The notes under the pieces: generated by a model | What the model saw: the letters and a program-made list of their open reading frames with translations, nothing else | Told to the model about the DNA's origin: nothing | The model's database searches: none | Assembly: GCA_945906305.1 (NCBI GenBank) | Contig: CAMDQT010000001.1 | Location: forward strand, 1 to 64,000 | Direction of reading: 5' to 3' | Length of the DNA stretch: 64,000 nucleotides | DNA from: Ferrithrix thermotolerans DSM 19514 | GTDB lineage: Bacteria; Actinomycetota; Acidimicrobiia; Acidimicrobiales; CAIXPF01 | Made by a program: the position numbers and the translations under genes | Shown here: positions 28,643 through 39,792 of the stretch, piece by piece | How the letters are laid out: each line of letters begins with the position of its first letter | Position numbering within the stretch: position 1 is the stretch's first letter

Positions 28643-30561
28643 ACGGCGACGCGATGGGCGACGCGCCGAAGGTCCCACCCGGTAGCGAGGGGAGGATCTA
28701 TGCCGACGAGGGCCAACCACGGTCCATCGTCGGCACCGACACCGGTGGTACCTTCACCGACCTTGTCACCGCCTCCGGTGAGGTAGTCAAGGTGTCCTCC
28801 GATCCGCAGGACCCCTCCAATGCCCTCCGACGAGCGCTGTTGGCCCGCCCCCGCAACCCGACCGAGCCGGTTGCGGTGTTGGCCCACGGAACCACCGTGG
28901 CCACCAACGCGTTGTTGGAGCGGCGTGGCGCCACCGTCGCCCTCGTCACCACCTCGGGTTTCGAGGACGTGGTTGAGATCGCCCGGCAGGACCGGCCGTC
29001 GTTGTACGACGCCTTGGTGGATCGGCCCGAACCACTCGTGCCTCGCCGGTGGCGGTACGGGGTCGCGGGCCGACTCGACGCCACCGGTAAAGAACTAGAA
29101 CCATGCGACGTGGGGACCCTTGCCCCCATCGACCCCGCCGTGGCGGCGGTGGCGGTGTGCTTACATCACAGCGACCTTGAGCCTGCTCACGAGCAGCAAG
29201 TGGCCGAGGAGTTGCGGCGTCGGGGCCACGACGTGACCGCCTCGCACGAGGTGTCCCCAGAGTTCCGCGAATACGAGCGCACCGTGACCACGGTGATCAA
29301 CGCCTACCTCCGGCCGTTGTGCCGGGGGTACCTCAGCCGGTTGGCGTTCCTAGCCGACGAGATCCGGGTCATGACCTCCGCCGGCGGGCTCATCGGCGCC
29401 GAAGAGGCGGCCAACCGGCCGGTTGCGCTGTTGCTGTCGGGTCCGGCCGGCGGGGTTCGGGCTGCGGCGCAGGCTGCGGTGGCCGCCGGGTTTGCGGACG
29501 CGGTGACCTTTGACATGGGCGGCACGAGCACCGATGTGTGTCTCGTACTCGACGGTGCCCCTGAACCGGCCGCGTGGCGTGAGGTCGCGGGCTTCGCGGT
29601 GCGCGTTCCATCGCTCGATGTGCACTCCATTGGCGCGGGCGGCGGATCGGTGGCCAGCATCGACCCCGGCGGAGCGCTGCAGGTGGGTCCGCGCAGCGCC
29701 GGGGCCTGGCCTGGTCCGGCTTGTTACGGCCGGGGCGGTGTCGAACCGACGGTGACCGATGCCAATGTGGTGCTGGGACGCATCGCCCCCACGGCCAGGC
29801 TCGGCGATCTGGCCCGCCTTGATCTAGCCGCCGCCCGCTCGGCCCTGGACGGGGCGGGGATCGCGGCGGCGGACCTGGTAGCAGTGGTCAACGCCAACAT
29901 GGAGCAGGCCATCCGCCAGGTGACCGTGGAACGGGGGGTCGATCCGGCTGGTCTGGCGCTGGTGGCGTTCGGCGGAGCCGGACCGCTGCACGGCTGTGAT
30001 CTGGCCGACGCGTTGGGCATGGCAGTTGTGGTGATCCCGGCCCGAGCGGGGGTTCTCTCGGCGGTGGGCCTGCTCAGCGCGCCCCGCCAACGCGATCTGG
30101 TGCGTTCCTGGCCCGCTCCGAATGACCACCACGGTGTGGCCCTGGCGTTGGCGGGTTTGGCCGCGGCCGCGGCGACCGCAGTGGGTGGCGATGCTGCCCT
30201 GGCCGAGGTTGCGGTCGACGCCCGCTACCGGGGTCAGAGCCATGAGCTCACCGTACCGTTTGGTCCGGCGGGCACGGCGATAGTCACCCCGGCGACCCTG
30301 GCGGAGGCATTCGCCGAGCGCCATCGGGCCTTCAACGGGTTCGACCGGCCCGATGCCCCGATCGAGGTGATTGCCCTTCGCTCCCGGGCGTCAGGCGCCA
30401 TCCCCATTCGCTACGAGGACTTGCCAACCCCATCGCGTCCGACGGTGCGTGGTCCTGCAGTGCTCGAGGAATCAGACTGTACGGTATGGATACCGCCGGG
30501 TTGGGTGGGAGAAGCCGGCGGTGGTGGCGCGTTGGTATTGCGCCGCGAGTTGCATTCATGA
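28639..30561 (+). CDS. hyuA: hydantoinase/oxoprolinase subunit A
   Basis: 640 residues. ASKHA-type ATPase subunit: GTDTGGTFTDLV phosphate loop at the N-terminus, AHGTTVATNALLERRGA, MTSAGGL, LLLSGPAGGVRAAA, VTFDMGGTSTDVCL, SIGAGGGSVA and FGGAGPLHGCDLA. Subunit A activates the substrate with ATP; subunit B carries the other half of the site. C-terminus is slightly shorter than in full-length HyuA. Overlaps hyuB as ATGA. Confidence 0.93.
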   Translation: MNGDAMGDAPKVPPGSEGRIYADEGQPRSIVGTDTGGTFTDLVTASGEVVKVSSDPQDPSNALRRALLARPRNPTEPVAVLAHGTTVATNALLERRGATVALVTTSGFEDVVEIARQDRPSLYDALVDRPEPLVPRRWRYGVAGRLDATGKELEPCDVGTLAPIDPAVAAVAVCLHHSDLEPAHEQQVAEELRRRGHDVTASHEVSPEFREYERTVTTVINAYLRPLCRGYLSRLAFLADEIRVMTSAGGLIGAEEAANRPVALLLSGPAGGVRAAAQAAVAAGFADAVTFDMGGTSTDVCLVLDGAPEPAAWREVAGFAVRVPSLDVHSIGAGGGSVASIDPGGALQVGPRSAGAWPGPACYGRGGVEPTVTDANVVLGRIAPTARLGDLARLDLAAARSALDGAGIAAADLVAVVNANMEQAIRQVTVERGVDPAGLALVAFGGAGPLHGCDLADALGMAVVVIPARAGVLSAVGLLSAPRQRDLVRSWPAPNDHHGVALALAGLAAAAATAVGGDAALAEVAVDARYRGQSHELTVPFGPAGTAIVTPATLAEAFAERHRAFNGFDRPDAPIEVIALRSRASGAIPIRYEDLPTPSRPTVRGPAVLEESDCTVWIPPGWVGEAGGGGALVLRRELHS

Positions 30562-32108
30562 GCGATTCGGCGGCGCCCGTGCTGGGCCCGGCCGCCCTAC
30601 AGATTCTCATCGCCCGTTTGTCCGGGGTGGCCCGCGAAATGTCCGCGGTGCTCCGACGGGCGTCCTACAGCCCGAACATCAAGGAGCGGGCCGATTTCTC
30701 CTGTGCGCTGTTCACCGCTGATGGGGAGCTATTGGTACAGGCCGAAAACATTCCCGTTCACCTTGGCTCGATGCCCGCCTCGGTGGCCGCGGTCATCGAC
30801 CGGTTCGGTGGCCGACTGCGGCCCGGCGCCGGGTTCGATGCCTGCTCGGGCCACCGAGATCTTCCAGGAGGGCCTGCGGCTGCCGCCGGTGGTGGTGGAC
30901 GAGTCGGTGCGAGACATCCTGCTGGCCAACAGCCGGACTCCGCACGAGCGGGCCGGGGACCTCGACGCGCAGCTTGGCGCCAATCGGCTCGGGGTGGCCC
31001 GCTTGGCGCAGTTCGCGGGACAACCGCTCGCCGAGGTCGTCGCCTACGGCGAACGGCGGATGCGGGCCGCGTTACGGGCCGTCGGCGACGGCGAGTGGCG
31101 TTTCGCCGATCAACTCGACAGTGCTGGTGCTGGTGCTGGAGAGGCCGTGCCGTTGCAGGTGCGCATCGTCATCAGCGGGGACGAGGTCTTGGTGGACTTC
31201 ACCGGCTCGGCCCCCCAGACGCCGGGAAACGTCAATGCGGTGGCGGCGGTGACGGTGTCCGCGGTGGCCTTCGCCTTGCGCAGCGCGCTCGATCCCACCA
31301 TCCCGGCCAATGGTGGCGCCATGCGGCCCGTCCGTCTGATCATTCCGCCCCGGTCCGTCCTGGCCGCCGAGGCGCCCGCGGCGGTGGCCGCGGGCAACGT
31401 CGAGGTGAGCCAGCGCGTGGCCGACCTCTGTCTCGGAGCGCTCGCCGCGGCGTGTCCGGCCCGCGTTGGGGCCGCTTCACAGGGCACGATGAACAACCTC
31501 CTCATCGGTGGTCGGGGCTGGGTCTACTACGAGACGGTGGCTGGCGGGCAGGGCGGCCGGCCGGGCAAGCCTGGAATGAGCGGGGTCCACACCGCCATGA
31601 CCAACACAAGTAAAGTGCCTACCGGTCAGCCCAGCCCCGGCACGCCCGGCCAGTCGGGAATTCAGACGGGCATGACCAACACCGTCGACGAAAGACACCA
31701 GTCGGCGGCGGGCCTTCCCGGCCAGTCCGGAATCCACACGAACACGACAAATACGAGAAATACCCCGATCGAGGCGCTGGAACGGGCGTTCCCGATGCGG
31801 GTGCTCCGGCAGCGGCTGCGGCGGGGGAGCGGCGGAGCGGGATGGTCCGCCGGCGGCGAGGGGATCGAGCGCGACCTCCAGGTGCTCGTCGATGCGACCG
31901 TGTCGCTGATCACCGAACGCCCTGTGAGCCAGCCGTGGGGCCTGGCCGGCGGCGAGCCGGGAGCTGTGGGAGAGAACTGGCTGCTCCCCGGCGGTGACGA
32001 GGCCCGTGCGGAGCGTCTGCCGGACAGTGCACGATTCAGTTGAAGGCCGGCGACGTCCTCCGGATGCTTACGCCAGGATGCGGCGGCTGGGGTCCGCCTT
32101 CCGTCGAC
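30558..32108 (+). pseudogene. hyuB: hydantoinase/oxoprolinase subunit B, broken by a deletion and a one-base frameshift
   Basis: From ATG 30558 the N-terminus is normal (ISPNIKERADFS-type segment, ENIPVHLGSMPAS) to about 30840. There the reading frame must change: the ~45 residues expected after GGRLRPG (DPF..GGTHL..D region) are missing, and the family sequence resumes in the next frame at APGSMPARATEIFQEGLRLPP. That frame continues to ~32022 through NGGAMRPVRLIIPP and TERPVSQPWGLAGG. Near GCCGGACAGTGCACG one A seems lost; compensating for it restores CTIQLKAGDVLRML and a stop at 32106-32108. Also contains a repeat expansion at 31573-31760. Both disruptions could be real decay or sequence errors. 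Confidence 0.75.
31573..31760 (+). repeat. in-frame triplication within hyuB
   Basis: Three imperfect copies of a 12-residue unit, GMSGVHTAMTNT, GQSGIQTGMTNT and GQSGIHTNTTNT, spaced 25 and 24 residues apart, lie where family members have a single GXSGVHTXMTNTXNTP motif. The spacers are Pro/Gly/Ser-rich. The length stays a multiple of three, so the downstream frame is preserved. Confidence 0.7.
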
Positions 32109-32201
32109 TGAAGTCCAGCCCCTGCGTGTGGGTCGAGTCGGGAACCAGGGGTCCACGATTGGGTAGTCCCCGGTTGGCAGCGCGGCTCGGGGGTTGTGCG
32201 A

Positions 32202-32209
32202 TTGCGCAA
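32202..32209. promoter_or_regulatory. palindrome TTGCGCAA upstream of the XRE gene (operator candidate)
   Basis: Perfect 8-base palindrome centred 26 bases before ATG 32231, within GTTGTGCGATTGCGCAAC. The same palindrome recurs at 33148 and nearly so at 33192, flanking the XRE-ImmA pair, as expected for autoregulation by the XRE protein. Confidence 0.45.
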
Positions 32210-32230: not shown

Positions 32231-32518
32231 ATGACAACCGAGACCCTCGGCCAACGAATCAAGAAGGAGCGTCTCGCTCAGGCGATGACGCAGCGCGACC
32301 TCGCGGAGGCCGCAGGGATCACGGTGCCATACGTGTCCAAGATCGAGGCCGGCAAGGAGACGCCCACCGAGGAGAAGATCATCAGGCTCGCCGAAGCCCT
32401 ACGGCTAGACGCCGACGAACTGACCCTCGCAGCGGGGCGGGTGCCTCAAGATGTGATGAATCAGCTAACCGCCGATCCCAAGAAGGCGCTCGAGTTCCTA
32501 CGAACGATGCCGAAGTAG
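32231..32518 (+). CDS. XRE-family transcriptional regulator
   Basis: 95 residues from ATG 32231. A helix-turn-helix domain occupies residues ~8-62: LGQRIKKERLAQAMTQRDLA, AGITVPYVSKIEAGKETP, EEKIIRLAEALRLDADEL. The remaining tail is short and helical (ADPKKALEFLRTM). Paired with the downstream ImmA-type peptidase, it is probably a repressor that the peptidase cleaves to induce the island. Confidence 0.9.
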   Translation: MTTETLGQRIKKERLAQAMTQRDLAEAAGITVPYVSKIEAGKETPTEEKIIRLAEALRLDADELTLAAGRVPQDVMNQLTADPKKALEFLRTMPK

Positions 32519-32520
32519 CG

Positions 32521-33141
32521 ATGGCCCGGCCAACGCATCGTCGAAGCGATGATCGGCATCGAGTCGTGGCTGGAGGGATTCTGCATCGCCACGCCACCGA
32601 CACCGGCCAGGCGATCGAGCTGCCGGTCCCGATCGAACTGATCGTCGAAGCGACCTTCGGCCTGTCGATCGAGTGGGCCGACATCGAGGAGCCGCCCGGC
32701 TACAGCATCCTCGGTGCCCTTGCTCCCTCGACGCCCACGATCATGATGAACGAGCGACACCTTGCGAGGTTCGATCGTTGGGTCGGACCCGAGCGATTCA
32801 CACTTGCCCACGAGCTGGCCCACTGGGTGTACGACGCCGAGAACCCAGATCAGGGCACGCTGGCGTTCGAGGGTGCAACCGAGATCTTCTGTCGAGCCGA
32901 CGACATCACAGATCTTGATCAGACGACGAAGCTTCGCGAGCAGAACGCCAATGCGCTCGCGGCGCACATTCTCCTGCCGGACCAACTCGTGCTTGCCCAT
33001 GATCTTGGGGCTGTGCTGGACGACGTCCGGCGCACAGCACACGACTGGGGTGTCTCCCAACAGACGTTGCGGATCAAGCTCGAACGACTTGGCGTCCTCG
33101 ATGACTACGGCGACGCCGAGCTCGACCGCCTCTTCGACTGA
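32521..33141 (+). CDS. ImmA/IrrE-family metallopeptidase
   Basis: 206 residues from ATG 32521, 2 bases after the XRE stop. The zinc-peptidase motif HELAH is at residues 97-101 with a downstream EIFCRADDI and EQNANALAAHILLP, as in ImmA/IrrE proteins that cleave a partner XRE repressor. Residues ~150-206 end in a winged-helix-like segment (WGVSQQTLRIKLERLGV). The N-terminal ~25 residues are very basic and may be an overlong start. Confidence 0.9.
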   Translation: MARPTHRRSDDRHRVVAGGILHRHATDTGQAIELPVPIELIVEATFGLSIEWADIEEPPGYSILGALAPSTPTIMMNERHLARFDRWVGPERFTLAHELAHWVYDAENPDQGTLAFEGATEIFCRADDITDLDQTTKLREQNANALAAHILLPDQLVLAHDLGAVLDDVRRTAHDWGVSQQTLRIKLERLGVLDDYGDAELDRLFD

Positions 33142-33147
33142 CAGGGG

Positions 33148-33155
33148 TTGCGCAA
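33148..33155. promoter_or_regulatory. second TTGCGCAA palindrome, overlapping a possible promoter
   Basis: Seven bases after the ImmA stop. TTGCGC here could also be a -35 with TACTGT at 33173-33178 as -10 (19-base spacer), so a protein bound to the palindrome would block transcription of the genes from 33272 on. Confidence 0.4.
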
Positions 33156-33183
33156 TCCCTCAATGTGTGGCTTACTGTCGGAG

Positions 33184-33199
33184 TTGCGTAGATGCGCAA
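33184..33199. promoter_or_regulatory. third related site, TTGCG-N6-CGCAA
   Basis: TTGCG at 33184-33188 and CGCAA at 33195-33199 form an inverted repeat with six bases between; the right half also reads ATGCGCAA. It lies ~80 bases before the small SGRF gene and downstream of the proposed -10. Confidence 0.35.
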
Positions 33200-33271
33200 T
33201 AGCCCAAGTAGGGCTCCGCCATCAGCTTGCCCGACGGTTCGACCCGTTACGGCCCCGATCTAGGAGAGGGG

Positions 33272-33403
33272 GTGTTGGAAGATGCCCAAGGCCCCAAGCC
33301 GACCGTCAACAAGTCCGCGGTGTCCGGGCGATTCGTCTCGAATCGTCAGGTCTCCCGCAGCCCGAAGACGACCTACAAGCAGGCCGTCAAGAAGAGCAAG
33401 TAG
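33272..33403 (+). CDS. 43-residue SGRF-type small protein
   Basis: GTG 33272, preceded at close range by the purine-rich GGAGAGGGG, to TAG 33401-33403. The product is basic and contains NKSAVSGRFVSNRQ and SPKTTYKQ. Short proteins with SGRFV and TTV/TTY motifs are common on actinobacterial accessory elements; their role is not known to me. A strong hairpin follows directly, so the gene may be transcribed separately from the nuclease gene. Confidence 0.6.
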   Translation: MLEDAQGPKPTVNKSAVSGRFVSNRQVSRSPKTTYKQAVKKSK

Positions 33404-33410
33404 GCACGCT

Positions 33411-33450
33411 CCCCTCGTGTCGGCCCGAACAGGTGGGCCGATACGAGGGG
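33411..33450 (+). terminator. long hairpin after the small SGRF gene
   Basis: CCCCTCGTGTCGGCCC (33411-33426) pairs with 33435-33450 with a single wobble, leaving the loop GAACAGGT. A 16-bp stem without a T-run. It separates the small gene from the OLD-type gene and could terminate or attenuate. Confidence 0.6.
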
Positions 33451-33521
33451 GCTGCCTCCGTGTTGCCGTTTCTGTCACACCCCCCGGGGACAATCGAAGA
33501 CGTCCCAAGAAGGAGATGATC

Positions 33522-35288
33522 GTGCGACTGCTGTCCTTCCGAGTTGGTCCCTACAAGAACATCCTCGATACGGGCCAGGTCAATGCCGAGCCGGACATCA
33601 CGGTGCTCGTCGGTAAGAACGAGTCCGGGAAGACCACCATCTTGCGTGCGCTAGAGGCGCGTGCGCCTGCACGAGGTCAGCGGGCGATCGCTCGCCACGA
33701 CTACCCGAGGTGGCGCCAGAAGCGGGATGAGCGAAGCGGTGAGTTCGAATCCGCGACGCCAGTCGACGTCACGTTTGCGTTCGAGGATGCCGACCAAGTG
33801 GCATTCGATGACACCTTCGGTCCGGGCGTGGTCAAGGCGGAGTCCGTGACGGTGGGCCGCCGATACGACAGCGGCGGTAGAACCTGGTCGGCGATCGGGC
33901 ACGATGCCCAAGCTGCGTTGGCTGACGCCATTGGTACCGACCTGGCCGTAGCACTGGCACCGACGCTCGCGGACCTACGGGCCCGACTCACGACTGACGC
34001 GGCAGTCGTGGACGCGAACGGCGAGGCGGCACCAGTGGCGGTTGCTTTGAAACACGCGCTGGAACGTCTCACGGCGCGATTCGGTGACCACGGGACCGTC
34101 GCGGACGCCATCCGGGCCTTCGCCGCCGACCGAATGCCTCGATTCTTCTACTTCGACGACCATGCGATGCTCCCGGGGACAACGGCGATCGAGCCCATCG
34201 TTGCTGCCCTTCGCGACGGCACGGCAGACGGGCTCGATGATGAACAACGCACGGCGCTGGCACTACTCCAGATGGGCTACGCCGACGACGAACTCGTGGC
34301 CGATGACTACGTGGCCCGCAAGGCTGAGCTCCAGGCCGTAGCGGGCGATCTCACGGACCGGGTCCTCGAGTACTGGCGCCAGAACCCGTACCTCCGCCTC
34401 ATCGTGGACGTGAACATGATCGAGGAGGCTGTTCCCGATGGTCAGCGAATCGTTCGCAGAGAGCTGAGACTCAACGTCGAGGACACTCGTACCCGGTTCG
34501 AGGATTCCCTCGACGATCGATCGTCGGGCTTCCGCTGGTTCCTCTCGTTCGTCGCCGCTTTCGACGAGTTCGAGTCAGACCGAGGTGTGATTGTCCTTCT
34601 CGACGAACCAGGTCTCAGCCTGCACGCACGCGCACAGGCGGACTTTCTGCGCTTCATCGAGGAGCGCGTTTCCGACCGCCACCAGGTGGTCTTCACGACA
34701 CACTCGCCGTTCATGGCCGACCTGGCACATCTGGAGCGTGTGCGCGTCGTCGAGTACTCGGACCCAGAGGTAGGCGCAACCGTGAGTGAGGCGGGCGGGG
34801 GGTCCAAGGACCCCGACACCCTGTTCCCGCTCCAGGCGGCGCTCGGCCACGACATTGCCCAGAACCTGTTCGTCGGTCCCGACAACCTCGTTGTCGAGGG
34901 CCTTTCGGACTTCACCTACCTCACCGTGATGTCGGACCACCTCAGCGGGCTTGATCGAAGCGGTTTGGACGAACGCTGGCGGGTGCTCCCTGCGGGTGGC
35001 GCCACGAACATCCCTACGTTCGTGTCCCTCGTGGGCCCGAGCCTCGAGGTGACCGTGCTGGTCGATGGTCGGGAGGCCTCCTCTCAGAAGATCCGCAAGA
35101 TGATCGAGGCAGGGCTCCTGGACTACAAGCGACTCGTCACACCGGACGCCGTCACAGGGAGAAGGTCATCGGACATCGACGTCTTCGCCGAGGGTGACTA
35201 CCTGGCGATTTACAACCTGGCGAACAGCACCACGCTGTCAGTCGACGACCTGGAAGGCGACGATGCCATCACCAGCCGCATCGGGTGA
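33522..35288 (+). CDS. OLD-family ATPase with TOPRIM nuclease domain
   Basis: 588 residues from GTG 33522, chosen because AAGGAG ends 6 bases upstream; the in-frame ATG 33516 abuts that site. N-terminal ABC-like ATPase: Walker A GKNESGKT (31-38), FFYFDDHAML, Walker B VIVLLDEPGLSL (Asp361-Glu362), TTHSPFMAD. C-terminal TOPRIM: LVVEGLSDFTYL (Glu459, Asp463) and TVLVDGREA (Asp515). OLD proteins are defence nucleases, e.g. in Gabija and retron/AriA-type systems. The TGA stop is followed in the same frame by 49 more codons with coding character (RPARYLLHHRDEVLVGLSPE) to TGA 35436, so the C-terminus may have been cut by a nonsense change. Confidence 0.88.
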   Translation: MRLLSFRVGPYKNILDTGQVNAEPDITVLVGKNESGKTTILRALEARAPARGQRAIARHDYPRWRQKRDERSGEFESATPVDVTFAFEDADQVAFDDTFGPGVVKAESVTVGRRYDSGGRTWSAIGHDAQAALADAIGTDLAVALAPTLADLRARLTTDAAVVDANGEAAPVAVALKHALERLTARFGDHGTVADAIRAFAADRMPRFFYFDDHAMLPGTTAIEPIVAALRDGTADGLDDEQRTALALLQMGYADDELVADDYVARKAELQAVAGDLTDRVLEYWRQNPYLRLIVDVNMIEEAVPDGQRIVRRELRLNVEDTRTRFEDSLDDRSSGFRWFLSFVAAFDEFESDRGVIVLLDEPGLSLHARAQADFLRFIEERVSDRHQVVFTTHSPFMADLAHLERVRVVEYSDPEVGATVSEAGGGSKDPDTLFPLQAALGHDIAQNLFVGPDNLVVEGLSDFTYLTVMSDHLSGLDRSGLDERWRVLPAGGATNIPTFVSLVGPSLEVTVLVDGREASSQKIRKMIEAGLLDYKRLVTPDAVTGRRSSDIDVFAEGDYLAIYNLANSTTLSVDDLEGDDAITSRIG

Positions 35289-35656
35289 GCATCCGCAGAC
35301 TCAGATCACAACCGACCGGCGCGCTACCTCCTTCATCATCGCGACGAGGTACTCGTCGGCCTGTCCCCGGAGACTCTCGATCGGTTCGAGGCGCTCTTCA
35401 AGGTGATCAACCGGTCCTGGTCGCGTGGACGGCGATGACGCACGATCTGCTCGTCGCCCAGACCCTTTAGAACTCACGTTCCGCAGAGCGCTCGGGGCCC
35501 AGCGCCTCCTCCGACAGATGGACTGCCGCAGTGCGGCCTTCGGAAGGATCTCCAATGACGCTCGTCCCGCCCAGTGCCAGCGGTCGCCGGCCCCACGGCT
35601 CGTTGATCGCCGGCCAATCGCCGGCCGGCCTCGCTCACCTCGCTACGTTTGACCCC
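35289..35656. other. intergenic stretch between the OLD and methylase genes
   Basis: The first 150 bases continue the nuclease frame after its TGA (see that entry). From 35439 to 35656 no gene, repeat or clear promoter is visible; ribosome-binding sites for the methylase are weak. Confidence 0.4.
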
Positions 35657-37168
35657 ATGACATCGGACGTGATCGTCGACATCGAGGAACGCCGCCAGCG
35701 AACTGGCAATGCGCTCGACCCGGTGAGGCGCTCGGAGCTGGGCCAATTCTTTACCCCCTCAGAGGTCGCCGCCTTCATCGCTGGCATGCTCGACGTGACC
35801 GATCGGCCGGCTCGACTCCTCGACCCTGGCGCCGGGGTTGGGTCGCTGACCGCCGCGGTGGTGGCTCGATGGCAGCAAAACGGGGGTGGACCTCTTGCCG
35901 TGACAGCGGTCGAGGCAGATCCCAGGCTCCAGGAGCCCCTAGGGCAGACGATCGCTGACCTGGGCCAGGTCCACCAGCTGACAGGGACCGTTGTCGAGGG
36001 CGACTTCATCGAGTGGGCCGCGGGGCATGTTTCCGGCTTCGGGGTGATGGACGCTCCGAAGTTCGACCTCGTGGTCATGAACCCGCCTTACCGGAAAATC
36101 CACACGGGATCGACCGAGCGCAGGACCCTCGCCGCTGCCGGAATCGAGGTCCCCAACCTGTACGCCGGGTTCGTCGCGCTGGCGGCAGAGTTGCTTGACG
36201 ACCAAGGCCAGATCGTCGCGATCATCCCGCGCAGCTTCACGAACGGGCCGTACTTCCAGCGCTTCCGGAAGCTCCTGTTGGATCGCATTGGCCTACAACA
36301 GATCCATGTCCTGGATTCGCGAGATGTCGCGTTCGCCGATAGCGCAGTACTCCAAGAGAACGTGATCATCCGCGGCGTCCGCGGCGAGCGTCCGACGGCG
36401 GTCTTCGTGTCCTCGAGCCGTTCGGTGTCCGAGCCAGTGACGGTCCGGAAGGTTCCTTACGTGGAGGTGGTCCGCCCCGACGACCCCGAGGCCTTCATCC
36501 ACATCACGCTCGATGAGGCCTCGGCTGAGTTCGCTCGACAGGTGCTTGAGTTGCCATGCCGACTCCCGACGCTCGACCTCAGCGTTTCGACGGGTCCGGT
36601 CGTCGACTTCCGTGCGAAGGAGCATCTGCGACAGGTTCCAGGCAGCGACACCGTCCCTCTAATTTTCCCAGCGCACCTTCGTCACGGCAGTGTCGTGTGG
36701 CCGCAGCCGAACGGCAAGAAGCCGAACGCGTTGGTGAGGTGCGAAGAGACCGAGCGCAGCCTGATGCCGTCGGGTACCTATGTGGTGGTGAAGCGGTTCA
36801 GCTCGAAGGAGGAACGTCGCCGGATCACGGCGACAGTGGTCTCGTCTGCCGATCTCCCGGGCGAGAAGTTCGCCTTCGAGAATCACCTCAACGTCTTCCA
36901 CCGATCGGGCGGAGGGCTGCCCGGTCGCCTGGCCGACGGCCTGGCCGCGTTCCTGAACACGACGACTGTTGACCAGTTCTTCCGTCAGTTCAACGGCCAC
37001 ACGCAGGTGAACGCCACCGACCTCCGCAACCTCCGGTACCCATCGGTCGAGGATCTGGAGGCGCTTGGGGACGTGGCCACCTTTGACCTGGAGCAGGAGA
37101 AGCTCGATGAGATCGCGGCCGATCTTCTCCCGACGTTCGCATCGGTTCCGATCGCCAAGTCCGCCTGA
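35657..37168 (+). CDS. N6-adenine DNA methyltransferase (Eco57I/PstI-like class)
   Basis: 503 residues from ATG 35657; the upstream open frame to 35531 looks non-coding. Layout: LGQFFTPSEVAAFIAGML (28-45), AdoMet motif LLDPGAGVGSL (54-64), VVMNPPYRKIHTG with NPPY at 142-145, and a C-terminal target-recognition region ending FRQFNGHTQVNATDLRNLRYPS. Modifies adenine at a specific site, normally protecting it from a partner endonuclease, which could be the convergent gene at 37261-38523. Confidence 0.9.
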   Translation: MTSDVIVDIEERRQRTGNALDPVRRSELGQFFTPSEVAAFIAGMLDVTDRPARLLDPGAGVGSLTAAVVARWQQNGGGPLAVTAVEADPRLQEPLGQTIADLGQVHQLTGTVVEGDFIEWAAGHVSGFGVMDAPKFDLVVMNPPYRKIHTGSTERRTLAAAGIEVPNLYAGFVALAAELLDDQGQIVAIIPRSFTNGPYFQRFRKLLLDRIGLQQIHVLDSRDVAFADSAVLQENVIIRGVRGERPTAVFVSSSRSVSEPVTVRKVPYVEVVRPDDPEAFIHITLDEASAEFARQVLELPCRLPTLDLSVSTGPVVDFRAKEHLRQVPGSDTVPLIFPAHLRHGSVVWPQPNGKKPNALVRCEETERSLMPSGTYVVVKRFSSKEERRRITATVVSSADLPGEKFAFENHLNVFHRSGGGLPGRLADGLAAFLNTTTVDQFFRQFNGHTQVNATDLRNLRYPSVEDLEALGDVATFDLEQEKLDEIAADLLPTFASVPIAKSA

Positions 37169-37260
37169 CGATCCGAACCTACGAGTCCGCCGAATCTGGC
37201 CGGTTCCGGCTCAACCCGCTGGAACTGAGGTCGAGGGATCGAGGCGAACGGTTGCTTCGG

Positions 37261-38523
37261 TCAGTACAGGCGCGGCAGTCCTTCGTTGGCAATGCGCTCC
37301 TTCAGCCGTGCTGGCCCACCGTCGCGGAGGTGTTCGATCAGCTCTGGGACCGTTCTGAACATCGCAGTATTGAAGTATGCGGCGATCTTGGTCTCCCGCG
37401 GGCGAGTCCGGGACTCGATGAAGTACTCGTTCATGGCGAACAAATCCGTCCACCAAAAGGCGACCGGTGCGAACCGAACTGTGGGCGGCGCAGCCCTGTC
37501 GATGAGCTGGGCGTGGAAGAGGTAGACTGGGACGGCATCCCGTTCGGCAACGGTTGTGATGTCGTCGCAGTCGCCCTGGTCGAGCTGAAACGTTCCCATC
37601 TTGGCGCCGATGGCGTCGCCAGTGATGTAGCTCTTCCCCGTCTTGAGTTCGATGGCGAACAGAAGCTCACCGGTGTCGATGTCCACGCCCTCGAAGTCAG
37701 CGGAAGCAACCTTGGCGGCGATTGTCGCAGCGTTCCTGCGGACCAGCCGTGGTTCATCCACCTCGCGCAGCTCGATTGCAGGGACATGGGGGGCAATAGT
37801 CTCGGCCCACGTGTCCACGATGAAACGCGAGGACGCGATGCTCCGGCCGAGCGAGCGAAGGACTCGGTCGCACCATGTGCACAGGAGCCATTGCCGAATA
37901 CGGATCTCGAGGATGAGGTTGCAGTGTGAGCAATGACCCACGTGCGGCGAGCCAACGAAGATCGGCTGCTCACCACCGAAGGAATCGGCGGTGAAGGAGT
38001 TGGAGCATTCCTCGCAGAGAAAGTGAGTGCACAGCGTCACGTCCCACTGCGCTGCACCGTGGCGAGCGCACTCATATGGGGCCCACGGGTCGACGGCGAG
38101 GAAGAGCCCGCGGTCACCGAGCGCATCGAGCAGCGCTCGGAGCGACCCTGGCCCGACACCTGGCAGTGCGAGTAGCTCCCGCTCGTTTTGACCCAGGAGA
38201 GCCTCGAGCGTGGTCAGCCCATTGGCATCGAGGATCCTTGCGAGCCTCCCAGGGAGGGCAAGATCGGCGATTGTCGTCCCTTTGAGCGTCATGGCGGCGA
38301 AGTCTGTCAGATGGATGACCAAGCAGTCCGGAGCCGGTGGCCACCAGGACGCGTCCTTCGAACTCAATCGAAACTTGATTTTCGAGAACCCGGCCGAGCC
38401 CGAACTCAAGGTCGAGCCCGACAACGACCATGGATCCTGGACCTCAGTCGAATCGACCTCGTGCAGAGAGAGCAGTGACGCCGCCAGGTCCGCGCCACAC
38501 CCACTCCTTCTCATGGTCCACAC
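37261..38523 (-). CDS. HhH / zinc-ribbon / PD-(D/E)XK protein, candidate restriction endonuclease
   Basis: 420 residues from ATG 38523; ATG 38292 would start at the hairpin domain and cannot be excluded. Residues ~80-140 resemble an RNA polymerase alpha-CTD-like helix-hairpin-helix module (ILDANGLTTLEALLG, LLALPGVGPGSLRALLDAL). Residues 150-220 carry CEEC (170-173), CSHC (198-201), CTWC (215-218) plus Cys152 and Cys165, probably two zinc ribbons. Residues ~275-310 give a PD-(D/E)XK core: FEGVDIDTGEL with Asp281 and FAIELKTGK with Glu292-X-Lys294. No known restriction family was recognised. Confidence 0.7.
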   Translation of the reverse strand: MWTMRRSGCGADLAASLLSLHEVDSTEVQDPWSLSGSTLSSGSAGFSKIKFRLSSKDASWWPPAPDCLVIHLTDFAAMTLKGTTIADLALPGRLARILDANGLTTLEALLGQNERELLALPGVGPGSLRALLDALGDRGLFLAVDPWAPYECARHGAAQWDVTLCTHFLCEECSNSFTADSFGGEQPIFVGSPHVGHCSHCNLILEIRIRQWLLCTWCDRVLRSLGRSIASSRFIVDTWAETIAPHVPAIELREVDEPRLVRRNAATIAAKVASADFEGVDIDTGELLFAIELKTGKSYITGDAIGAKMGTFQLDQGDCDDITTVAERDAVPVYLFHAQLIDRAAPPTVRFAPVAFWWTDLFAMNEYFIESRTRPRETKIAAYFNTAMFRTVPELIEHLRDGGPARLKERIANEGLPRLY

Positions 38524-38745: not shown

Positions 38746-39603
38746 TCACGCCCGGAGCTGCACGCCGACGCGTGTGGGGTCGAAGGCCCTGCGACGCGAT
38801 GTCGCAGAGCGAACCGTGAGTGTGGCGACCAAGGCCTCGACAAGGCGTCGCTGGAAGTCGATGCCGGACTTGTCCCAGGTGGTGACGAGCTCCTCGAAGC
38901 TCGATGGCATCGTCGGCACCTCTCCCGCTCGGCTATCGCTTCATTGCTCGCTGGCAGTCTTGATCTGGTCGTCGAGCCTGGCCTGCGGGGTTCGGAACGT
39001 CGCACAGTCGATGTCGCCCTCGGTGTACAGGTCGACGAGGCGCTCCCGGCGCACATGGAGATCGGCGAGCGCATCCGACATCGCCCCTGGCGCTGCCGCA
39101 GGTGTCAGCTCCGCCATCGCCGCCCGCGTCACCGGGTCGGCGAGCATCCCGCAGATGAGATCCCGCACGTAGTTCTCTAGCCCGTTGGTCTGGATGCGGA
39201 TACCGCCGCAGCCGCCCATGCCCGGGCCCTTGCGGCAGGCGTACGACCTGCCGCCGTTCTCCCGAGCGAGCGACCGCAGCGGTCCTCCGCACTTGCCGCA
39301 GACGAGGAACCCGACGAGGGGATAGGTCCGCCCCTGCCTCGGCTTCGACTTCCGAGGAGCGAGAGCAGCGACGAGAGCGTCGTGGCGGTCCTCGTCGACG
39401 ATCCGTTTCCACTGGCCCTCACCGACGACCGTGCCCCGGTGCGTGCGGAAGCCGGCGATGCGCGGCGACGAGAGGATCGACGTCAGGGTCTGGACCGTCC
39501 ACGACTTGCCGGTCACCGTCGGTACGCCACCCTTGTTCCAGCGGGTGCAGATGCTCCACACCGACTCGCCGGCGAGCACCCGGTCAGCCTGATCACGGAG
39601 CGT
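38746..39603 (-). pseudogene. large serine recombinase remnant: no catalytic domain, internal stop
   Basis: Read from the right-hand hyuB junction, the frame encodes DQADRVLAGESVWSICTRWN, SWTVQTLTSILSSPRIAGF (recombinase domain) and a zinc-ribbon LVCGKCGGPLRSL...CRKGPGMGGCGG, then a coiled C-terminus. The N-terminal resolvase domain with the serine nucleophile is absent. A TGA at 38943-38941 interrupts the same frame, which resumes with PSSFEELVTTWDKSG and FQRRLVEALVATLTV and stops at 38746. The intact parent would have been an integrase for the island or an earlier element. Confidence 0.75.
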
Positions 39604-39792
39604 CGGGTGAGCCAGCCCTGGGGGCTCGCCGGTGGCGCGCCGGGGGCGGTGGGGGAGAACTGGCTGCTGCCCGGCGGTGACGAAAGCCGGGCGGAACGCT
39701 TGGCCGACAAGTGCACCATCGACTTGCGCGCCGGTGATGTGCTGCGGATGCTCACCCCTGGCGGCGGTGGTTGGGGCTCGCCCGACGCCTGA
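39583..39792 (+). pseudogene. detached 3' end of hyuB
   Basis: Encodes VSLITERRVSQPWGLAGG, GENWLLPGGDESRAERLADK and LTPGGGGWG to the stop at 39790-39792: the C-terminus of the HyuB family, with no N-terminal part in frame. It has no frameshift at DKCTI, unlike the left copy. It is either the original end of the gene displaced by the island or a second gene's remnant. Confidence 0.75.

What the first reader, a model, noticed from the sequence alone, without database searches (positions are those of the whole stretch)
32231..38523. Possible defence cassette: XRE-ImmA switch, SGRF peptide, OLD nuclease, adenine methylase and an unassigned nuclease
Known pieces: ImmA cleaves XRE repressors, OLD/TOPRIM proteins act in several anti-phage systems, N6-adenine methylases protect DNA. 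The combination with an alpha-CTD-like/zinc/PD-(D/E)XK protein in one island does not match a named system that I recall. A working model is a restriction-modification pair with an inducible OLD effector.
Basis: partly seen in the sequence, partly recalled or inferred. Interest (0 to 1): 0.78.

Follow-up and report, generated by a model that had tools for sequence, protein, structure and literature searches.

The report
Patchwork mobile island with restriction pair
A worn-out mobile element has carried three unrelated gene modules into one bacterial gene: a DNA-cutting and DNA-marking pair whose cutter is of an unassigned kind, a self-regulating switch with a tiny protein, and a damaged ATPase, so it is a collection of parts and not one new defence system.

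Summary
They are cargo of a decayed large-serine-recombinase (LSR) element inserted in the 3' end of hyuB. A sister element in another genome of the same order (L027 = G614) sits at the same hyuB site with an intact LSR and a TrwC relaxase; it shares only the methylase-nuclease pair and carries different cargo. That pair is conserved: in 8 of 8 nuclease loci found, the methylase is convergent next door. The methylase belongs to the BsuBI/PstI-type group, but its partner is not the PstI-type enzyme. It is a protein with an alpha-CTD-like HhH domain, eight conserved cysteines and a PD-(D/E)XK core: a candidate new restriction endonuclease family. XRE-ImmA-SGRF is a second, separate module. It recurs with a DUF3892 gene and no OLD or RM genes, and its operator-like repeats are conserved in three genomes. 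The OLD-like gene is a third module: it has its own upstream sequence, follows a strong hairpin, has lost the TOPRIM DxD, and carries a premature TGA.

The parts
30486..32103 (+). hyuB (hydantoinase B), left copy; apparently a pseudogene, target of the insertion
   Evidence: PF02538 E 2.8e-109; reading frame changes near 30.85 kb and a 1-base loss near 32.03 kb, read; duplicated 3' end (D1)
32194..32209 (+). operator-like inverted repeat upstream of XRE
   Evidence: pattern with up to 1 mismatch: 3 matches at 2 places, 0.36 expected; equivalent repeat upstream of XRE in L124 and L125
32231..32518 (+). XRE-family HTH repressor, 95 aa
   Evidence: 71% and 57% identical relatives in L124 and L125
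32521..33141 (+). ImmA/IrrE-type metallopeptidase, 206 aa
   Evidence: PF06114; HELAH and REQNAN helix kept
33148..33199 (+). two operator-like repeats upstream of SGRF
33272..33403 (+). SGRF microprotein, 43 aa (GTG/TTG start)
   Evidence: 82% identical over 33 aa in L125
33404..33455 (+). strong hairpin after SGRF, probable end of that transcription unit
   Evidence: -43.3 kcal/mol, z -4.44; a hairpin lies at the same place in L125, z -2.19
33516..35288 (+). OLD-like AAA_15 ATPase with degenerate TOPRIM, ending at a premature TGA
   Evidence: relative 59% identical in G486
35289..35438 (+). in-frame conserved OLD C-terminal tail after the TGA
   Evidence: tblastn E 1.9e-6 to L033; L126 61% identical
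35657..37168 (+). BsuBI/PstI-group type II N6-adenine methylase (503 aa)
   Evidence: PADLOC MTase_II E 2.1e-165; plasmid relatives 47% identical beside BsuBI/PstI REases
37261..38292 (-). candidate restriction endonuclease: alpha-CTD-like HhH domain, eight conserved Cys, PD-(D/E)XK (ORF runs up to 38523)
38749..39588 (-). LSR remnant without the catalytic N-terminal domain, one internal TGA
   Evidence: 57-60% identical to the intact LSR in L027
39585..39791 (+). displaced hyuB 3' end, right boundary of the island
   Evidence: D1 (81% identical over 121 nt)

Best explanation
The region is a decayed, immobile relic of an LSR-dependent element that integrated in the 3' end of hyuB. It carries three separable modules. 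(a) A type II restriction-modification pair: the Eco57I/PstI-type methylase would mark adenine in a specific site, and the convergent nuclease would cut unmarked DNA. The pairing is shown by conservation; the cutting and the site are inferred. (b) An XRE-ImmA-SGRF regulatory module. XRE would bind the TTGCGCAA-type repeats at its own promoter and at the SGRF promoter (inferred from operators conserved in three genomes). ImmA would remove XRE under stress, as in known XRE-ImmA and CapH-CapP pairs (inferred). The SGRF peptide would then be made. (c) An OLD-like ATPase with its own upstream region, probably no longer a functional nuclease.
For: Same hyuB insertion with intact LSR and TrwC relaxase in L027. 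Empty site with intact hyuB followed by the same epimerase in same-genus genomes G001, G002 and G003. Right junction explained by loss of the equivalent of L027 4884-5624, which removes the LSR N-terminus. Methylase-nuclease pair convergent in 8 of 8 loci. Methylase group: 7 of 8 fetched plasmid relatives sit with a BsuBI/PstI REase (the exception is H43), as does G039 (PF06616 E 8.4e-57). Nuclease: D201, E217, K219 and eight Cys invariant in 6 full-length rows; model matches Hjc/D212 nucleases. XRE-ImmA-DUF3892-SGRF without OLD or RM genes in G007. Operators. Hairpin.
Against: The nuclease model is of moderate confidence (mean pLDDT 64.8; the Cys region is below 50). No restriction site is known; CTGCAG is not depleted in the window (19 found, 17.9 expected). 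Element boundaries rest on one sister element plus a third partial case (G012). The XRE-ImmA module has only two close relatives in the genomes searched, one at a contig end (L124).
Confidence: 0.75

Rival explanations
1. One new defence system: the RM pair protects self DNA and an XRE-ImmA switch induces an OLD effector.
For: Adjacency in this one genome; ImmA and XRE score against the CBASS regulators capP and capH in PADLOC (E 1.7e-14 and 2.4e-7).
Against: No co-occurrence in 7 other nuclease loci, 11 OLD neighbourhoods or 2 XRE-ImmA loci (one of the two is cut by a contig end). OLD is truncated and has lost DxD.
Confidence: 0.05
2. XRE-ImmA controls OLD as an inducible effector, separately from the RM pair.
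For: OLD lies 112 bp downstream of SGRF on the same strand.
Against: Strong hairpin between them. The sequence CTGTCACACCCC just upstream of OLD is shared with the OLD locus of G486, which has no XRE-ImmA. OLD is damaged. In G007 the switch ends with SGRF.
Confidence: 0.1
3. The Cys-rich protein is not the restriction enzyme but an accessory or regulatory partner of the methylase (for example a modification-dependent nuclease or a transcription factor built on the alpha-CTD-like domain).
For: alpha-CTD-like N-terminus (E 4e-8, Z 12.6); no similarity to BsuBI/PstI REases; best fold matches of the nuclease part are Holliday-junction resolvases, not REases.
Against: It takes the place of the BsuBI/PstI REase beside a PstI-type methylase in 8 of 8 loci. 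D, E and K are invariant. In G499 it is broken while the methylase ORF is open, a usual decay of RM pairs.
Confidence: 0.15
4. XRE is the control (C) protein of the RM pair.
For: Weak PADLOC Control_protein score (E 6.3e-6).
Against: XRE occurs without the RM pair in G007 and G448 (L124 by its fetched part), and the RM pair without XRE in 7 other loci. Its repeats lie at its own promoter and SGRF's.
Confidence: 0.03

Closest known systems
BsuBI/PstI type II restriction-modification systems
   Same: Methylase of the same group, 47% identical to plasmid members that sit beside BsuBI/PstI REases.
   Different: The partner nuclease has no PF06616 match and no profile similarity to three such REases; the genes are convergent and partly overlapping.
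CapH-CapP regulators of CBASS and other immune operons (PMC13373217, passages read)
   Same: HTH repressor followed by an ImmA/IrrE-type peptidase; PADLOC capP and capH scores.
   Different: The operator-bearing downstream gene is a DUF3892/SGRF small-protein unit, not a recognised immune operon.
ImmR-ImmA modules of integrative elements such as TnSmu1 (PMC10233336, abstract read)
   Same: XRE-like repressor plus metalloprotease, stress switch on or near mobile DNA.
   Different: In G007 the module sits beside a gene read here by eye as glutamine synthetase, with no element genes recognised in the fetched stretch.
OLD-family and PARIS AriA ATPases
   Same: AAA_15/ABC ATPase core; PADLOC AriA E 4.3e-19; solved OLD 6p74 E 2.9e-8.
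   Different: TOPRIM DxD lost, C-terminus cut by a TGA, no AriB or helicase partner recognised in the island.

Membership tests
BsuBI/PstI type II RM system | PstI-group N6-adenine methylase | tested here: met
   tree places it among PstI-type methylases, branching order unresolved
BsuBI/PstI type II RM system | BsuBI/PstI REase (PF06616) as partner | tested here: not met
   no PF06616 row up to E 1; hhalign probability 0.3% with shallow profiles
Type II RM system (general) | nuclease gene stably linked to the methylase | tested here: met
   8 of 8 loci
Type II RM system (general) | site-specific cleavage blocked by the methylase | not testable with these tools
   needs enzyme assay
PD-(D/E)XK nuclease | D...ExK on the core sheet | tested here: met
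   D201, E217, K219 invariant; strands 202-206 and 212-218; Hjc rows Z up to 10.8, rmsd 2.6, 116 aligned
XRE-ImmA / CapH-CapP switch | HTH repressor followed by HEXXH peptidase | tested here: met
XRE-ImmA / CapH-CapP switch | repressor operator at own promoter | tested here: met
   repeats conserved in 3 of 3 loci; binding itself not shown
XRE-ImmA / CapH-CapP switch | controls a downstream immune operon | tested here: inconclusive
   downstream unit is SGRF/DUF3892; OLD lies behind a hairpin
OLD nuclease | TOPRIM Glu and DxD | tested here: not met
   Glu kept, DxD replaced by DGR; canonical in L127 and L128
OLD nuclease | ABC ATPase core | tested here: met
Gabija | GajB helicase next to GajA | tested here: not met
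   the genes called on both sides of OLD are SGRF and the methylase; none of the eight proteins scanned in the region is a helicase
LSR-dependent mobile element | serine recombinase at one end and duplicated target at the ends | tested here: met
   in the window the recombinase is only a remnant

The most novel reading that the evidence does not exclude
The convergent nuclease founds a restriction endonuclease family in which a domain of the RNA polymerase alpha-CTD type reads DNA (or touches the transcription machinery) while a Hjc-like PD-(D/E)XK domain cuts. It would have replaced the PstI-type enzyme beside an otherwise unchanged PstI-type methylase, so that recognition was rebuilt around a borrowed transcription domain.
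Probability: 0.3. Interest if true: 0.6.

Novelty: new variant of a known kind. Interest (0 to 1): 0.42.

Why it matters
It turns an apparent five-gene system into three reusable modules and points to one testable novelty: a restriction enzyme family missed by the family libraries searched here, found through its stable link to a well-known methylase group. It also documents hyuB as an insertion hotspot for defence-carrying elements in this bacterial order, and a small-protein module under what looks like XRE-ImmA control.

Tried and rejected
Single-system model: rejected on neighbourhood counts. XRE as RM control protein: rejected. Nuclease as distant BsuBI/PstI REase: no profile match. Nuclease or ImmA on viral contigs, plasmids or phages: no match (nuclease: plasmids, 32 viral contigs, 102 phages; ImmA: viral contigs, 34 plasmids). 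SGRF: two weak plasmid matches (E 0.08 and 0.3) and none in phages. CTGCAG avoidance: none seen in the window. First structure job with 3 sequences gave a poor model (mean pLDDT 46.6); the second with 7 was better. The methylase tree does not resolve whether the partner changed once or twice; long branches are flagged there. Most of the 112 of 397 hits of the nuclease profile cover only the alpha-CTD part (probably rpoA, by their length; not checked one by one) and were dropped; 8 cover more. ImmA in the PDB by sequence gave only spurious designed-barrel matches. A simple sigma-70 promoter scan found nothing. Literature: searches listed no paper that I recognised as describing this nuclease, this module or hyuB as such a site; the library is partial, and I saw only the listings plus the passages or abstracts of PMC13373217, PMC4081073, PMC10233336 and PMC6329791.
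Full report
What is there. The ORFs of the finding are real and were identified by Pfam: an XRE repressor (32231-32518), an ImmA/IrrE-type peptidase (32521-33141), a 43-aa SGRF peptide (33272-33403), an OLD-like AAA_15 ATPase (33516-35288), an Eco57I-type N6-adenine methylase (35657-37168) and, on the minus strand, a protein with an alpha-CTD-like HhH domain (37261-38523; homology starts near 38292). Region G+C is 0.62-0.65 against 0.69-0.71 for the upstream 27-32 kb.

The island. The 3' end of hyuB occurs twice, at 31906-32026 and 39589-39709 (81% identical). Next to the right copy lies a large serine recombinase remnant lacking its catalytic domain, with an internal TGA and no second copy in the genome. 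It has an intact LSR (Resolvase, Recombinase and zinc-ribbon domains), a TrwC relaxase, a ThsB-type TIR protein, an 8xMP membrane protein, a pP_pnuc_1 nuclease protein and the methylase-nuclease pair. DNA comparison: window 35636-38234 matches L027 12588-10044 at 77%; window 38833-39582 matches the LSR; window 39589-39776 matches the displaced hyuB end; the stretch from 32.1 to 35.6 kb has no match. The window's right junction corresponds to loss of L027 4884-5624. So the two elements share the RM block and the LSR end but differ in the other cargo. In same-genus genomes G001, G002 and G003 hyuB is uninterrupted and is followed downstream by the same epimerase: the empty site. G012 shows a third LSR beside a hyuB end.

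Module 1, the RM pair. A profile of the nuclease found 8 of 397 genomes of the order with more than the alpha-CTD part. In all 8 the methylase lies beside it on the opposite strand (gaps and overlaps for 7 of the 8; the eighth, L110, has a broken nuclease; L109 is a partial nuclease near a contig end). None of the 7 other loci has XRE, ImmA, SGRF or OLD matches at E 1e-3 in 8.8-19 kb of fetched sequence. The methylase is near full length to PADLOC MTase_II (E 2.1e-165). It has 190 plasmid records with a match. I fetched 8 of these: 7 have a BsuBI/PstI REase beside the methylase and 1 (24% identical) does not. In the same order, G039 has a 40% identical methylase with a true BsuBI/PstI REase. 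So methylases of one group have two different partners. A tree leaves open whether there was one change or two.

The nuclease. Apart from the HhH/alpha-CTD part and a weak C1-domain score (E 0.0049) over part of the Cys region, Pfam finds nothing in it. NCBIfam likewise scores only the alpha-CTD part, and PADLOC and PHROGs find nothing. The profile matches solved alpha-CTDs (E 4e-8). Across 6 full-length rows C77, C90, C95, C98, C123, C126, C140, C143, D201, E217 and K219 are invariant. The 7-row model (mean pLDDT 64.8) gives alpha-CTD (Z 12.6) and, for residues about 150-331, Holliday-junction resolvases (4tkd_B Z 10.8, rmsd 2.6, 116 aligned), with D212 nuclease in Foldseek (E 9.2e-4). The Cys region is modelled poorly. 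A zinc site is an inference from the cysteines.

Module 2, XRE-ImmA-SGRF. In 317 genomes of the order 3 have this ImmA at E 1e-8: the window, G448 and G007. In a phylum sample, 14 of 296 have a match at E 1e-3, the best other than the window itself at 7e-13; those seen sit in other settings. G007 has XRE (57%), ImmA (56%), a DUF3892 gene (PF13031) and SGRF (82% over 33 aa), with no OLD or RM genes in 18 kb. G448 has XRE (71%), ImmA (70%) and the start of a DUF3892-like gene (read by eye) at a contig end. All three have a repeat of the form GGTTGTGNNNTTGCGCAA before XRE, and TTGCGCAA-type repeats before the DUF3892 or SGRF gene. In the window TTGCGCAA alone is not beyond chance (2 found, 0.74 expected); the longer pattern is rarer, and the conservation across genomes is the stronger argument. 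The window lacks DUF3892. The peptidase keeps HELAH and a Glu in the following helix. CapH-CapP is the nearest described logic: CapP is activated by ssDNA and cleaves CapH (PMC13373217, passages). An ImmR-ImmA pair controls an ICE in TnSmu1 (PMC10233336, abstract).

Module 3, OLD. Relatives occur in 12 of 317 genomes at E 1e-15 including the window. I fetched 5 of these 11, plus 6 from the phylum sample; none has XRE or ImmA nearby. A hairpin of -43.3 kcal/mol (z -4.44) follows SGRF. CTGTCACACCCC lies before OLD both here and in G486. The ATPase motifs and the TOPRIM Glu are kept, DxD is not; L127 and L128 keep it. The TGA at 35286 is followed by 49 in-frame codons similar to relatives. This is either a real nonsense mutation or an assembly error.

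Verdict. The RM pair with an unassigned nuclease is the part worth testing. That no described system matches rests on the libraries and literature searches named above and cannot exclude REBASE entries, which were not available.

Noticed in passing
window 31570-31754; L027 15.69-15.88 kb; L091: In genomes carrying the LSR element hyuB has one or two extra in-frame units ending in PGQSGI(H/Q)T..TNT before NTPIEALE; hyuB of G001, G002, G003, G005 and G010 has a single copy. They look like in-frame att scars of repeated integrations that restore the gene's 3' end.
   Followed up: partly
L027 12.8-15.2 kb: Sister element at the same hyuB site carries ThsB-type TIR, 8xMP membrane protein and pP_pnuc_1 nuclease protein in place of XRE-ImmA-SGRF-OLD.
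   Followed up: partly
window 30.8-32.1 kb; L027 15.6 kb: hyuB seems broken in the window (frame change with about 50 residues missing, plus a 1-base loss near the end) and has a 25-nt tandem duplication shifting frame in L027.
   Followed up: partly
window 33272-33300: The SGRF gene has no in-frame ATG here; relative to G007 the start region differs, so it may begin at GTG/TTG or be frameshifted at its start.
   Followed up: partly
L110 7.9-8.6 kb; L109 8.0-8.67 kb: Nuclease broken (G499) or 5'-truncated (G572) beside an open methylase ORF, as expected for decaying RM pairs.
   Followed up: partly
L126 1-7.5 kb: The 59% identical OLD of G486 sits beside genes that look conjugation-related by their sequence (read by eye, not scanned).
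   Followed up: no
L027 record title: Contig QEUP01000022.1 is titled Acidobacteria, yet it matches in length a contig of G614, listed in the window's own order.
   Followed up: partly
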